A stretch of DNA of 64,000 nt from Halobellus rarus (GTDB lineage Archaea > Halobacteriota > Halobacteria > Halobacteriales > Haloferacaceae). The notes under the pieces are model-generated. The model ran no database searches. It saw only the letters and a program-made list of their open reading frames with translations, and was not told the DNA's origin. Positions 37,047 to 41,271 of the stretch are shown in pieces (within the stretch, counting starts at the first letter, position 1; each line of letters opens with the position of its first letter). A program made the position numbers and the translations under genes. The stretch is from assembly GCF_024494595.1 (NCBI RefSeq), contig NZ_JANHDI010000001.1:248001-312000 (forward strand). Reading direction: 5' to 3'.

Positions 37047-38351
37047 TCACAGCAGCGCGAACACGGCGAGGGCGCTCACGACCGCGCCGACCAGGGTCGC
37101 GGCGAAGTTGACCGCCTCGTTACCGAACGTCGCCCCCTCCACGGTCGCTCCCAGGACGCTGTCGGCGTTCATCCCGAGGAACCCGCCGAGCGCGACGGCG
37201 GCCCCGCCGAGCGGCGTGACCCCGGGCAGGAGCGCGAGCGCGACGACCCCGACGACGGCCGCACCGATGAGCCCGAACACCTCGCCCTGCCAGGTCACCC
37301 CGCCGTCGGTGCCCGGCGGCACGGTCTCGAACGACGTGATGAGCCGCGGGTTGTCGTACAGTCCGCCGAGTTCCGAGGAGAGCGTGTCGCTCAGCGCGGC
37401 CGCCATCGACCCGGCGAAGGCGTACTGAAAGAGGGTCCCGTCGACCGGGAGGGACTGGCTGGCGGCGAAACAGATGACGCAGACGAGCGCGACGGCGGCG
37501 TTTCCGAGCACGTTTCCGGTCCCGCGGGCTCCCTCGTTCTCCTCGGCGATTCCGCGCTCCGTCTTCTCGTCGTACCTGTACTTCGTCGAGAGCGATCCGA
37601 CGCCGAAGAAGCTGATGAGCACGGCGAACCAGCCGACGCCGCCGAAGACGATCACGAGCAGGCCGAGGAGGACCCCCGAGAGCATCCCCGCGACCGAGGC
37701 CGCCCCGAGCGCGTAGGAGGCGATTCCCAGCGCGACCGTGACCGCCAGTCCCGCCACCACGTCGAGCGTCCCGACCGCGACGGCGAGCGCGTCGAACAGC
37801 CACAGCAGCATCCCGGTCGAGAGCATCACCAGCGGGTCGTCGCGCTCGAAGAGCATCTCCCTGAACAGCGCCGCGACGAGCGTGCCCGCGACCGCGAGGA
37901 AGGTGAACCGCGGCAGGAGGATCGACGTCGACGACAGCGACGCCACCGCGGCCTGTCCTGCGACGCCCGCGAGGCTCCCGCCGAGCCCGAACCCCGCCGC
38001 CCCGAGGAACGGGTTGTCGGTCGTCTCGGCGACGAGTCGCTTGCCCAGGTTGCCGTAGGCGAGTACTAACACGGCGGCGACGAAGAGCGGGATGGGAAGA
38101 CCGATCTCGGTCGCGAGAATCGCGAGCCCGGCGGCGGCTAGCGCGAACCCGGTGAGACCGTTCAGTCGGCCTTCCCGGCGGTCTGCCGGCCGGGCGAACA
38201 GCTCGAACAGCGGCCCGTCGGTGATCCCGAACGCGGCGGCGACCGCGACCGCGGCGAAGGGAGCGAACGCCGCCCGCCCGAGCACCGGCGCGGCCACCGC
38301 CAGGGTCCCCACCAGGGCGAATCCGCCCGCCCGCCGGAGCGTCGGTTGCAC
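37047..38351 (-). CDS. DUF92 family membrane protein
   Basis: A 434-residue polytopic membrane protein (about ten helices). The C-terminal half carries the DUF92/TMEM19 pattern: FFGVGSLSTKYRYDEKTERGIAEENEGARGTGNVLGNA, AALSDTLSSELGGLY and GEVFGLIGAAVVG. Some members act in phytyl phosphate or isoprenoid metabolism; no function is settled for archaea. I use the GTG at 38351 because TTAAGTG-type sequence (about 38374-38382 on the opposite strand) lies 23-31 nt upstream, the correct distance for a TATA box. The first in-frame ATG (38399) lies upstream of that box. It is followed by the GNAT gene. Confidence 0.88.
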   Translation of the reverse strand: MQPTLRRAGGFALVGTLAVAAPVLGRAAFAPFAAVAVAAAFGITDGPLFELFARPADRREGRLNGLTGFALAAAGLAILATEIGLPIPLFVAAVLVLAYGNLGKRLVAETTDNPFLGAAGFGLGGSLAGVAGQAAVASLSSTSILLPRFTFLAVAGTLVAALFREMLFERDDPLVMLSTGMLLWLFDALAVAVGTLDVVAGLAVTVALGIASYALGAASVAGMLSGVLLGLLVIVFGGVGWFAVLISFFGVGSLSTKYRYDEKTERGIAEENEGARGTGNVLGNAAVALVCVICFAASQSLPVDGTLFQYAFAGSMAAALSDTLSSELGGLYDNPRLITSFETVPPGTDGGVTWQGEVFGLIGAAVVGVVALALLPGVTPLGGAAVALGGFLGMNADSVLGATVEGATFGNEAVNFAATLVGAVVSALAVFALL

Positions 38352-38531
38352 GTCACCGGATACCTCCGACGCGCACTTAACCCTCCCGACATCCGGCATC
38401 GCCGTCCCCCGCTCGTGGTTCCGTCGCCCTCGGCTCCGGACGTCGTCTCGCCCCACCGCTTCGGCGGCGTCGTCGCTGCCGCGAGCGTGGCCGTCTGCGC
38501 GACCGGGGGCCGCGACGACCCGGCGTCGAGA

Positions 38532-39290
38532 TCACAGCGTCGACGTCACCTGTTCTGCGCTCGCGACCTCGGGGATGATCACCTCGTCCGCGCCGGCGCG
38601 GCGCGCGAGCGCCTCGTACATCTCGTCGCCGACGCGGACGACGAGTCGGACGGTCGGCGCGATCTGGCTCGCCCCCATCGCGATCTGGATGTTCGCGTTC
38701 GAGTCGTCGATCGCGCCGACGACCGTCGTCGCCCGCTTGACGCCCGCGTCTCGCAACACCTGCTCGCGCCGCGCGTCGCCCTGCACCGCGAGGAGATCGT
38801 CGTCGAGCGCGCGCTGGAACTCCGAGTCCTGCGTCTCGATCACGACGACGTCGCGCTCCCCGTCTCGAAGCCGCCGGGCGACCGTCTTCCCGAACGTCCC
38901 GTAGCCGCAGATGATGACGTGGCCCTGCAACTCGTCGATCGTCCGTTCGATCTGCATCGCTTTGAACTCCGTTTGAATCTGTCCGCCGAACGCCGCCGAG
39001 AACACCGTCTCGCCGATCCAGAGGCCGGTGACGACGAGCCCCGACAGCACGACGACCGCGTAGCCTTTCGTGAGCGTTTCTGCCCCATCGTGCGCCTGAA
39101 AGTGCAACTCGATGCTCGTCGGGTCCAGGAGCCAGAAGAGCGCGTCGACGACGCCGACCCCGCCCAGCGAACTGAACCCCGCGACGCCGACGGCGACGAC
39201 GACCCCGAAGGCCGCAACCGGACGGAGCAGGCGGCGAAGCAGCGGCCGCTGCACGACTGCCCGAACCGGCCCGGGAGACGACGCGCTCAC
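38532..39290 (-). CDS. RCK/TrkA-N-type protein with two membrane helices
   Basis: A 252-residue protein. Residues 20-100 include two hydrophobic segments (VAAFGVVVAVGVAGFSS and TLTKGYAVVVLSGLVVTGLWIG) with a pore-loop-like region between them. Residues 120-252 form an RCK-type Rossmann domain with the NAD-binding signature HVIICGYGTFGKTVARRL and the acid-ended VVVIETQ strand. This is the architecture of two-helix RCK potassium channels, but I cannot find the K+ selectivity filter (T-V/I-G-Y-G). It may be a channel of different selectivity or a sensor subunit. GTG start at 39290. No clear operon partner. Confidence 0.85.
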   Translation of the reverse strand: MSASSPGPVRAVVQRPLLRRLLRPVAAFGVVVAVGVAGFSSLGGVGVVDALFWLLDPTSIELHFQAHDGAETLTKGYAVVVLSGLVVTGLWIGETVFSAAFGGQIQTEFKAMQIERTIDELQGHVIICGYGTFGKTVARRLRDGERDVVVIETQDSEFQRALDDDLLAVQGDARREQVLRDAGVKRATTVVGAIDDSNANIQIAMGASQIAPTVRLVVRVGDEMYEALARRAGADEVIIPEVASAEQVTSTL

Positions 39291-39515
39291 TCGGCCCTCC
39301 GTGGCGGCGTTCTACCCCGACTCATTTCCAAACATATCTGCACCACTAGTGCGCTATCACACAACATCGTGTTCTTATCTTTCGAATACCTTTCTTTATC
39401 GGCACGTAATAGTGCTTTCTATGACACAATCGAACACCACGTTACCGCGTTGGCGTGTCCGAACGCGACGTCTCGAACCCGGAGGCATATATCGCCGTGG
39501 CTCACAGGACTGCCC

Positions 39516-40124
39516 GTGGGACTGTACGACCGCTATCTCGCCCTCCGCCATCGCATCCACGACGCCGACCCGCCCGCGCACGTCGCGGTCGTGATCACCG
39601 AACGGGACCTGCTCGAACAGGGGGCGTACGAGACGCTCGCGGAGTTCCTCGGGTGGGCCTTCGAGTACGGCGCAGCGCGCGTCACCGTCTCCGTGAGCGT
39701 GCTCGACGAAGCCGTGGTGCCGACCCTGTCGCGGGAGCTTCGGAACGTCGACTCGCCCCGCCCCGTCGCGGTCCGAGAACCGGGCGACACCGAACGGGCC
39801 GACGCCCCCGTGCGGGTGAACATCGGACTCGGCGGGAAGCGCGAGTTCGCCGCGGCCGTCCGTCGGATCGCCGAGTCCGTCGACTCCGGCGAACTCTCGC
39901 CCGACGACGTCGACGCCGAGGAGATCGAGGAGCGACTCGTCTTCGACGACGAGCCCGACCTGCTGATCAAGACCGGAGCGGAGCGGCTGTCGGACTTCCT
40001 CATCTGGCAGTCGGTCTACTCGGAGTTGTACTTCACCGACGTGAACTGGCGGGACTTCCGCCGACGGGACTACCTCCGGGCCGTGTTAGACTACCAGAAC
40101 CGACAGCGGCGGTTCGGTCGGTGA
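39516..40124 (+). CDS. Cis-prenyltransferase-like protein, probably non-catalytic subunit
   Basis: A 202-residue homologue of undecaprenyl diphosphate synthase. It keeps the C-terminal family part (LLIKTGAERLSDFLIWQSVYSELYFTDVNWRDF, matching IIRTGGDERTSNFLPWHANGNEAAVYFC of the neighbour) but the N-terminal P-loop reads HVAVVITERDLLEQGAY where catalytic members have HVAIIQDGNRRYA. The catalytic Asp/Gly/Asn/Arg cluster is gone. This pattern resembles NgBR/Nus1-type subunits that activate a catalytic partner. It is convergent with uppS (78 nt between stops). GTG start at 39516 with TATATATCG (about 39486-39494) about 25 nt upstream. Confidence 0.8.
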   Translation: MGLYDRYLALRHRIHDADPPAHVAVVITERDLLEQGAYETLAEFLGWAFEYGAARVTVSVSVLDEAVVPTLSRELRNVDSPRPVAVREPGDTERADAPVRVNIGLGGKREFAAAVRRIAESVDSGELSPDDVDAEEIEERLVFDDEPDLLIKTGAERLSDFLIWQSVYSELYFTDVNWRDFRRRDYLRAVLDYQNRQRRFGR

Positions 40125-40202
40125 CCGGAGTCGGTCACGTCGCGACTCGGCACGCTTCGGTGTCGCGGACGGCCGCCGGTCGGTCTGCGAGATGGCCGGC
40201 GA

Positions 40203-41144
40203 TCAGTCCGCGCGTTCGCCGGCGTCCGCGCCGCGCTGGCGTTCCAGTTCCGCCGACACCTCGCGAGCGCCCGCGGAGGGGAGTTGCGTCCGCAACCGTC
40301 CGGCGACGGTCTTCGCGTCGGCGAGTTCCGTCTCGGCGACGGCGCGGAGGAGCGCGACGGCGCGGTCGGCCCGGGACTGCCGCCAGGACTGCTCGCGGGA
40401 CTCGTAGGTCCGCAGGCCGCGCAGGAAGTCCACTTTCGAGAACTCCGGCCAGTAGGGCGCACAGAAGTAGACGGCGGCCTCGTTGCCGTTGGCGTGCCAC
40501 GGCAGGAAGTTCGAGGTCCGCTCGTCGCCGCCGGTCCGGATGATCAGGTCGACGTCCCGTGTCGTGTGCTCGGCGAGGCGGTCCTCGACGGCGTCGGCGT
40601 CGACGTCCGCGGGCGCCAGTTCGCCGGCGGCGACTTCCCGGGCGACCGTCCTGGCCGCACCCAGCAGTTCGGATCGGCCGCCGTACGCCAGGGCGATGTT
40701 AAGTCGGAGCGAGTCGTACTCGACCGTCTGCGACTCCGCGTAGGCGACGGCGTCGCGGACCCGCTCGGGCAGTCGCTCGACGTCGCCGATCGCCCCGATC
40801 CGGACGCCGTTCTCGTGGACGCGGTCGGCGTCGGCGAACTCGTAGAGCTTCGATTCCAGCAGGTCGAAGAGGGGTTCGAGCTCCTCGTCGCGGCGGTCGA
40901 AGTTCTCCGTCGAGAAGGCGTACAGCGTGAGCTCTTCTATCCCGAGTTCCTCGCACCACTCGAGGACGCGTTCGGTCGTCTTCGCGCCCTCGCGGTGTCC
41001 GTCGGGTGCATCGTCCCCGCGTCTGCGGGCGTAACGCCGGTTGCCGTCCTGGATGATCGCGACGTGCGTGGGTGCGGCCTCCAGCTGTCGGCGGAGCATC
41101 CGCTCGTACGCGTCGGTGAAGCGTCGGCGGAGCCACTGCGACAT
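40203..41144 (-). CDS. uppS: Cis-polyprenyl diphosphate synthase (UppS family), catalytic
   Basis: A 313-residue cis-prenyltransferase that makes the dolichol-type carrier precursor for glycosylation. It has the catalytic motif HVAIIQDGNRRYARRRG (Asp of the DGNRR), LTLYAFSTENFDR, LNIALAYGGRSEL and the C-terminal IIRTGGDERTSNFLPWH. It carries an N-terminal helical extension (MSQWLRRRFTDAYERMLRRQL) and a C-terminal extension of about 40 residues. It converges with the related gene at 39516, which lacks these catalytic residues, so the products may form a heteromer. A large frame extends upstream but the ATG at 41144 gives the family start. Confidence 0.94.
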   Translation of the reverse strand: MSQWLRRRFTDAYERMLRRQLEAAPTHVAIIQDGNRRYARRRGDDAPDGHREGAKTTERVLEWCEELGIEELTLYAFSTENFDRRDEELEPLFDLLESKLYEFADADRVHENGVRIGAIGDVERLPERVRDAVAYAESQTVEYDSLRLNIALAYGGRSELLGAARTVAREVAAGELAPADVDADAVEDRLAEHTTRDVDLIIRTGGDERTSNFLPWHANGNEAAVYFCAPYWPEFSKVDFLRGLRTYESREQSWRQSRADRAVALLRAVAETELADAKTVAGRLRTQLPSAGAREVSAELERQRGADAGERAD

Positions 41145-41271
41145 ACCTACTCCGACTCCGGCCTCGGATATGTGTCTTTTCGTTGTGACAAATTGACATT
41201 CGACCCCCGTGGACGGGCCGAACGAACACTGAGACGACACGGTTTTGCCACGTCCCGGAGAACCGACGGGT

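What the first reader, a model, noticed from the sequence alone, without database searches (positions are those of the whole stretch)
39516..41144. Two convergent cis-prenyltransferase genes: likely heteromeric enzyme
The gene at 39516 encodes a homologue whose catalytic P-loop (DGNRR) has become ITERD, while the adjacent uppS product keeps all catalytic motifs. Heteromeric cis-prenyltransferases with an inactive NgBR/Nus1-like subunit are known in eukaryotes and in Methanosarcina. Here the pair is side by side but on opposite strands, so expression would have to be balanced by other means. If so, the haloarchaeal dolichol carrier needs both proteins.
Basis: partly seen in the sequence, partly recalled or inferred. 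Interest (0 to 1): 0.55.

Follow-up and report, generated by a model that had tools for sequence, protein, structure and literature searches.

The report
Two-part lipid-carrier enzyme in haloarchaea
Two neighbouring genes of a salt-loving archaeon look like the working half and the helper half of one enzyme that makes the lipid carrier for sugar chains, laid out much like the human enzyme; the arrangement is a known kind, traced here more widely.

Summary
Observation confirmed. Window 39516-40124(+) encodes a 202-aa cis-prenyltransferase (cPT) homologue whose catalytic P-loop DGNRR reads TERDL; 40203-41144(-) encodes a complete catalytic cPT (UppS). The genes converge, 78 bp apart, and are the only two cPTs that Pfam finds in the genome.

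The active site is divided: DGNRR is in none of 133 partners, while the C-terminal RxG motif is in 132 of 133 partners and aligned in 0 of 168 UppS. All 133 partners stop one residue after RxG, as human NgBR does, whose terminal carboxylate contacts DHDDS. The partner is under purifying selection and occurs in 240 of 242 Halobacteria. Partners and UppS form two clades, each with a Methanosarcina member; M. mazei MM_0618/MM_1083 is in print as heteromeric. So this is a new member of a known kind.

Less expected: linked pairs are nearly always convergent across the phylum, and each gene has its own TATA-like element.

The parts
39516..40124 (+). Non-catalytic cis-prenyltransferase subunit (NgBR/Nus1-like), 202 aa, GTG start; P-loop replaced by TERDL, IKTG for IRTG, C-terminus ...NRQRRFGR
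   Evidence: PF01255 94.3 bits; alignment of 59 orthologues; motif tables; RxG and C-terminus count
40203..41144 (-). Catalytic cis-prenyltransferase (UppS), 313 aa, catalytic motifs kept, no RxG at the homologous place, helical C-terminal extension
   Evidence: PF01255 228.5 bits and TIGR00055 232.1 bits over a cut-off of 109.55; motif tables; model with helices 237-272, 274-287, 290-309
39597..39611 (+). Place of the former catalytic P-loop: codons for T28 E29 R30 D31 L32 of the partner
   Evidence: E29 R30 D31 L32 invariant in 59 partners; aligned with E. coli D26-R30; DNA
40110..40121 (+). C-terminal R-F-G-R: RxG motif plus one last residue
   Evidence: RxG in 132 of 133 partners, all 133 ending one residue later; NgBR counterpart R290-L291-G292-K293 described in PMC7573591 section 9
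39486..39492 (+). TATA-like element (CATATAT) of the partner gene, centred near -28 from the GTG
   Evidence: A+T fraction 0.90 at -28 over 71 Halobacteria genes, mostly 0.2-0.4 around it
41168..41173 (-). TATA-like element (ACATAT) of uppS, 24-29 bases before the ATG
   Evidence: A+T fraction 0.87 at -27 and 0.89 at -34 over 79 Halobacteria genes
37047..38456 (-). DUF92 membrane protein, frequent neighbour of the partner gene in Halobacteria (divergent from it); possible lipid kinase of the same pathway (inference)
   Evidence: PF01940 196.2 bits; present and divergent beside the partner in 59 of 80 named Halobacteria loci; uppS link in print, PMC5898192, passage

Best explanation
The two genes encode the two subunits of one heteromeric cis-prenyltransferase that makes the polyprenyl diphosphate precursor of the dolichol carrier (C55-60 expected for haloarchaea, recalled). 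UppS supplies the P-loop, the hydrophobic tunnel and the IPP-binding RTGG...RxxS residues (shown by sequence). The partner has lost the residues that bind the allylic substrate and most likely serves by reaching across the dimer with its C-terminal R-F-G-x tail: RxG and the terminal carboxylate complete the pyrophosphate sites of UppS, as NgBR does for DHDDS (inferred from homology, from the complementary lack of RxG in UppS and from the exact position of the C-terminus). The pair most simply arose by one duplication before the radiation of the phylum and is often kept as a convergent gene pair, each gene with its own promoter.
For: Complementary motifs: DGNRR in 86 of 88 Halobacteria UppS (the other two, L041 and L045, are cut off by the end of the fetched locus), in 80 of 80 UppS of other classes, and in 0 of 133 partners; aligned RxG in 132 of 133 partners and 0 of 168 UppS. 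All 133 partners end one residue after RxG, as NgBR does: the partner profile aligns with NgBR to the last residue of its chain, and the terminal residue K293 of NgBR contacts DHDDS R37 and R85 (PMC7573591 section 9). Co-occurrence: 240 of 242 Halobacteria have the partner, the two misses being a divergent copy (L224) and a contig end; of 63 phylum genomes looked at one by one 61 have both types, one lacks UppS (G072) and one, 64% complete, lacks the partner (G490); family f18 has no PF01255 match and no partner-profile match in 5 of 5 genomes. Purifying selection. Partners form one clade (100/99) and UppS another (99/94) in an 85-row tree. A Methanosarcina genome, recognised by its near copy of MM_0014, has one other cPT in each clade; PMC8131916 states that MM_0618 and MM_1083 form a heteromeric cPT making C45-50 (passage). 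Folds agree with the family: partner model Z 13.7 to NgBR; UppS model Z 28.2 to DHDDS, tied with a bacterial cPT.
Against: No binding or activity was measured. Lack of RxG does not prove that a partner is needed: MM_0014 lacks it and is a homodimer in crystals (passages). Two UppS of family f15 (L067, L072) have RRYG or RRFG two residues off register, and ten UppS in all have an R.G near the tail. The gene pair is unlinked in many genomes. The match of the partner profile to NgBR is weak (E 0.0012), and fold comparison ranks NgBR (13.7) no higher than DHDDS (14.6) or plant and bacterial cPTs (up to 14.9), all within little more than 1 Z. In Halobacteria the partner keeps IPP-site-like residues (R200 in 74, S202 in 75, E213 in 75 of 75; K for R194 in 73), which an inert subunit would not need.
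Confidence: 0.87

Rival explanations
1. UppS works as a homodimer; the partner is a separate protein that lost catalysis and took a new role, for example sensing IPP or polyprenyl phosphate or scaffolding later dolichol steps.
For: The partner keeps IPP-site-like residues in 73-75 of 75 Halobacteria sequences, as if it still bound a diphosphate; MM_0014 shows that a cPT without RxG can be a homodimer; the genes are unlinked in several families.
Against: RxG and the exact C-terminus, which in known cPTs reach into the other subunit's active site, are among the most conserved parts of the partner; UppS has no aligned RxG in 168 of 168; the Methanosarcina pair is in print as heteromeric.
Confidence: 0.08
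2. The partner is a decaying duplicate without function.
For: The catalytic P-loop is gone, and the stretch from the first strand to the N-I-A/G strand is about 42 residues shorter than in UppS (from the sequences).
Against: dN/dS 0.05-0.15, 80% mean column identity against 59% for UppS in the Halobacteria alignments, 240 of 242 genomes, conserved promoter position.
Confidence: 0.01
3. The partner is itself an active enzyme with a remodelled active site and a different prenyl product.
For: IPP-site-like residues and RxG remain.
Against: In 75 Halobacteria partners D26, N28, R30, R39, H43, F70 and R77 are kept in 0, N74 in 1 and G27 in 2; in 58 partners of other classes D26 is kept in 12, N28 in 3 and R39, H43, F70, R77 in none. 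UppS has no RxG to give back.
Confidence: 0.03

Closest known systems
Methanosarcina mazei heteromeric cPT MM_0618/MM_1083 (Emi et al. 2019, not held; described in PMC8131916, passages seen)
   Same: Same phylum and the same two clades: the Methanosarcina catalytic protein and partner (L143, L144) fall with the window's. Which of MM_0618 and MM_1083 is which was not seen.
   Different: In the eight family f13 genomes looked at, the genes are over 11 kb apart or on different contigs; in the window they are a tight convergent pair. M. mazei has a third cPT, MM_0014, of which the window's genome has no counterpart.
Human DHDDS/NgBR (NUS1) complex, PDB 6z1n, 6w2l, 7pb1
   Same: Inactive cPT-fold partner ending in RxG plus one residue. 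UppS profile aligns with DHDDS over 4-295, beyond the catalytic domain; partner profile aligns with NgBR to its last residue. That DHDDS lacks RxG is recalled.
   Different: The partner begins directly with the cPT domain, without NgBR's N-terminal transmembrane domain (mentioned in PMC7573591, passages); it keeps IPP-site residues; the match to NgBR is weak (E 0.0012). A shared origin is not shown.
Homodimeric bacterial UppS such as E. coli IspU
   Same: Fold and, in the window's UppS, the catalytic motifs.
   Different: E. coli carries P-loop and RRFG in one chain, with nine residues after RxG; here they are divided between two chains.
Archaeoglobus fulgidus heteromeric cPT
   Same: I recall such a report; family f15 and the rest of the phylum have both types here.
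   Different: Not seen: the paper search found nothing.

Membership tests
Heteromeric cis-prenyltransferase | One subunit with the catalytic motifs | tested here: met
   DGNRR, H43, F70, N74, R77, R194, R200, S202 equivalents in UppS
Heteromeric cis-prenyltransferase | Second subunit homologous to cPT but without the catalytic P-loop | tested here: met
   PF01255 match, TERDL at the P-loop
Heteromeric cis-prenyltransferase | RxG supplied by the non-catalytic subunit and missing from the catalytic one | tested here: met
   132 of 133 partners against 0 of 168 UppS aligned; yeast Nus1 has N for R, so R is not universal (PMC7573591, passage)
Heteromeric cis-prenyltransferase | The two proteins form a stable complex | not testable with these tools
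   No complex prediction or binding assay was available
Heteromeric cis-prenyltransferase | Activity depends on both subunits | not testable with these tools
   For the phylum only a statement about the M. mazei pair was seen
Clade of the Methanosarcina non-catalytic subunit | Falls in one supported clade with it | tested here: met
   Partner clade 100/99, 40 rows of an 85-row tree rooted on one E. coli row
NgBR/NUS1 proper | C-terminus one residue after RxG | tested here: met
   133 of 133; profile end coincides with the NgBR chain end
NgBR/NUS1 proper | N-terminal transmembrane domain | tested here: not met
   202 aa, model starts with a helix at 3-14 followed by the first strand at 22-28; no room for an anchor before the cPT domain. 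NgBR's anchor: PMC7573591, passages
NgBR/NUS1 proper | Common ancestry with eukaryotic NgBR apart from other cPTs | not tested
   No eukaryotes and no other archaeal phyla in the tree
Homodimeric UppS | P-loop and RxG in the same chain | tested here: not met
   Neither protein has both

The most novel reading that the evidence does not exclude
The eukaryotic DHDDS/NgBR enzyme descends from this archaeal split: the duplication that divided P-loop and RxG between two chains happened once in archaea and was inherited by eukaryotes, so that the partner studied here stands for the ancestral form of NgBR, still carrying an IPP half-site and lacking the membrane anchor. The exact shared C-terminus and the DHDDS-like C-terminal region of haloarchaeal UppS would be traces of it.
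Probability: 0.22. Interest if true: 0.75.

Novelty: new member of a known kind. Interest (0 to 1): 0.45.

Why it matters
It extends a heteromeric enzyme that this library reports from one methanogen to a whole archaeal phylum, with a sharp sequence signature (P-loop in one gene, RxG plus one final residue in the other). Haloarchaea with good genetics would allow a simple test of why dolichol synthesis uses a dead subunit, a question that also bears on human glycosylation disease. It offers a rule for annotation: a second 'UppS' that ends in RRFGx and has no DGNRR is the partner, not a second synthase. The conserved convergent order of two presumed subunits of one enzyme is, to my knowledge, unusual, and it is unexplained.

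Tried and rejected
NCBIfam gives no hit over its cut-off for the partner, so naming rests on Pfam and alignment. Foldseek and VIA-align do not single out NgBR: many cPT structures tie, so the fold search is not used to claim NgBR membership. A DHDDS-type tetramerisation domain in UppS was considered: three C-terminal helices are predicted with modest confidence in the window protein and the DHDDS alignment runs to 295; Halobacteria UppS have a median of 55 residues after the RxG place but those of other classes 5, so it is not part of the core argument. A conserved element between the two stop codons was looked for by spacing only: distances run from 1 to 6967 bases over 53 loci, so none is claimed. 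A plasmid search matched 93 records; the ten listed are bacterial and no haloarchaeon is among the ten commonest organism names. The genome-contig scan returned 80 Halobacteria loci, its cap, so other archaeal phyla, Asgard archaea among them, were not reached. Paper searches for haloarchaeal cPTs, archaeal or heteromeric cPTs and DUF92 with uppS gave listings whose titles and abstract openings name no heteromeric cPT of haloarchaea; passages of PMC7839719 and PMC6770870 have none either. The library lacks most subscription journals, and the primary paper of 2019 is not held.

Rows left out: A1 used 59 of 71 distinct Halobacteria partners, A2 56 of 82 Halobacteria UppS found by then, A3 37 partners; the tree used 85 of 307 sequences. 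The five MM_0014-like proteins were set apart from UppS by me (0 of 5 with RxG). Orientation counts used the 85 genomes whose two genes both appeared in the capped lists and 61 of the 63 genomes. The partner-profile search of the phylum (381 of 392 genomes, 316 of 320 at least 90% complete, at E 1e-25) is weak evidence for the partner itself, since UppS also passes that limit: nine genomes, 64-89% complete, have a best E above 1e-40, and G501 has one Pfam match only, a full-length catalytic one, yet E 7e-44.

Full report
What is there. [quoted passage not shown] The partner, 39516-40124 (+), is 202 aa; UppS, 41144-40203 (-), is 313 aa. Pfam PF01255 matches both, the partner over its last hundred residues only, and finds no third copy in the genome.

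The partner is catalytically dead by sequence. On E. coli numbering the P-loop D26-R30 reads TERDL in 71 and AERDL in 2 of 75 Halobacteria partners; R39, H43, F70 and R77 are kept in none of 133 partners. The new stretch is itself fixed: E29 R30 D31 L32 L33 E34 are invariant in 59 Halobacteria sequences, though not across the phylum. dN/dS against six close relatives is 0.05-0.15 for the partner and 0.13-0.19 for UppS, so this is not decay.

The active site is divided. DGNRR is present in 86 of 88 Halobacteria UppS (the other two are cut off by the end of the locus) and in 80 of 80 from other classes, and in none of 133 partners. The RxG motif, which PMC8131916 calls highly conserved at the C-termini of homodimeric cPTs (passage), is aligned in 132 of 133 partners (one has K) and in 0 of 168 UppS; ten UppS have some R.G nearby, two of them (L067, L072) an RRYG or RRFG two residues off register. 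All 133 partners stop exactly one residue after RxG. Human NgBR does the same: PMC7573591 (section 9 read) reports that RxG of NgBR builds both pyrophosphate sites of DHDDS and that its last residue, K293, contacts R37 and R85 of DHDDS. The partner profile aligns with NgBR to the last residue of the chain, though weakly (E 0.0012).

Distribution. 240 of 242 Halobacteria genomes have the partner at E 1e-25 or better. One miss, G218, has a divergent copy (L224); the other, G236, runs into a contig end. Of 63 phylum genomes listed match by match, 61 have both types; G072 lacks UppS and G490, 64% complete, lacks the partner. In a wider draw 385 of 392 genomes have a PF01255 match, most of them two. 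A partner-profile search finds a match in 381 of 392, or 316 of 320 at least 90% complete, but UppS can pass its limit too, so this is supporting only; of the four misses, two (family f20) have a divergent copy found by Pfam and two (family f18) have no PF01255 match. All five f18 genomes, 75-91% complete, lack both genes by both searches: a joint loss, but at most one event.

Phylogeny. In an 85-row tree rooted on E. coli all partners form one group (100/99) and all UppS another (99/94), with Halobacteria inside each. One duplication before the radiation of the phylum is the simplest reading; a single outgroup row is a weakness, and the bootstrap had not fully settled. Genome G347 carries a near copy of MM_0014, which marks it as Methanosarcina; its other two cPTs (L143, L144) fall one in each group. 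PMC8131916 (passages) says that MM_0618 and MM_1083 of M. mazei form a heteromeric cPT making C45-50 and are likely responsible for the glycosyl carrier lipid. By elimination the window pair is orthologous to that pair; the M. mazei sequences themselves were not compared, and the primary paper is not held.

Gene order. Of 85 Halobacteria genomes with both places listed, 63 have the genes within 50 kb and all 63 are convergent; 42 lie within 1 kb; 12 are more than 50 kb apart (6 convergent, 1 divergent, 5 on the same strand) and 10 on different contigs. Of 61 further genomes, 58 of them of other classes, the 19 pairs within 1 kb are all convergent; at 1-11 kb there are 4 convergent and 1 on the same strand; 15 are further apart and 22 on different contigs. 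Close convergent pairs occur in twelve families outside Halobacteria and look ancestral; none of the 8 genomes of family f13 (Methanosarcina's) or the 9 of f15 has one. These genomes are related, so the counts are not independent events. Each gene has its own A+T peak, at -28 for the partner (GTG start in 69 of 71) and at -27 and -34 for UppS (ATG in 73 of 79), as expected for leaderless transcripts. Balanced supply therefore does not come from one operon. That the conserved GTG tunes the partner's level is a guess; partners of other classes mostly start with ATG by my choice of start (43 of 58).

Neighbours. In 80 named Halobacteria loci the partner gene lies divergent to a DUF92 gene in 59 and convergent to uppS in 50; 20 show neither within the fetched stretch. 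In the window a TrkA-N gene sits between DUF92 and the partner. PMC5898192 (passage) already links DUF92 proteins (arCOG02245) to uppS (HVO_2318) and suggests a kinase step of isoprenoid metabolism.

Mechanism. Shown: two conserved genes, complementary motifs, exact C-terminus, co-occurrence, clades shared with Methanosarcina. Inferred: the partner dimerises with UppS, its RFGR tail enters the UppS active site, and the product is the dolichol precursor. Not tested: binding, activity, chain length. Against: MM_0014 shows that absence of RxG need not mean a partner, and Halobacteria partners still have IPP-site-like residues (K for R194 in 73, R200 in 74, S202 and E213 in 75 of 75), of which E213 is kept in 133 of 133; its role is open.

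Verdict. Observation confirmed, interpretation supported, kind known. The new content is the wide extent, the clean division of motifs with the fixed C-terminus, the two clades, and the conserved convergent layout.

Noticed in passing
window 37047-38456 (-) and loci L234-L313: A DUF92 membrane protein is divergent from the partner gene in 59 of 80 named Halobacteria loci; perhaps a prenol-phosphate kinase of the same lipid-carrier pathway (inference).
   Followed up: partly
window 38532-39290 (-); L234-L237: A TrkA-N (potassium channel type) gene stands between DUF92 and the partner. Among 80 named loci only L234-L237, all Halobellus, have it, and the same four have serS beside uppS; L254, also named Halobellus, does not.
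   Followed up: partly
window 39516 and 71 Halobacteria loci: The partner gene starts with GTG in 69 of 71 Halobacteria, while uppS starts with ATG in 73 of 79: a conserved GTG start on a leaderless-type promoter.
   Followed up: partly
partner protein K152, R157, S159, E170: IPP-site-like residues persist in the inactive partner (E213 equivalent in 133 of 133); possible vestigial or regulatory phosphate site.
   Followed up: no
genomes G248, G257, G266, G275, G282 (family f18): No PF01255 match at all in 5 of 5 genomes (75-91% complete) of one family: possibly archaea without a cis-prenyltransferase of this family.
   Followed up: no
L270, L277, L282, L286, L293, L298, L307, L309, L312, L313 (nine Halorubrum records and one unnamed relative): Partner matches of 636-678 bases instead of 606 indicate insertions of about 10-24 residues in this group.
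   Followed up: no
L134, L145, L148, L229, L230: A third, MM_0014-like cPT without RxG in some genomes of families f12, f13 and f28; L145 was matched to MM_0014.
   Followed up: partly
G061, G068, G098, G149, G148, G002, G105 (three) and G195, G226 (four): Some Halobacteria genomes have three or four PF01255 matches instead of two; at least in G068, G195 and G226 an extra one is a full-length catalytic copy.
   Followed up: no
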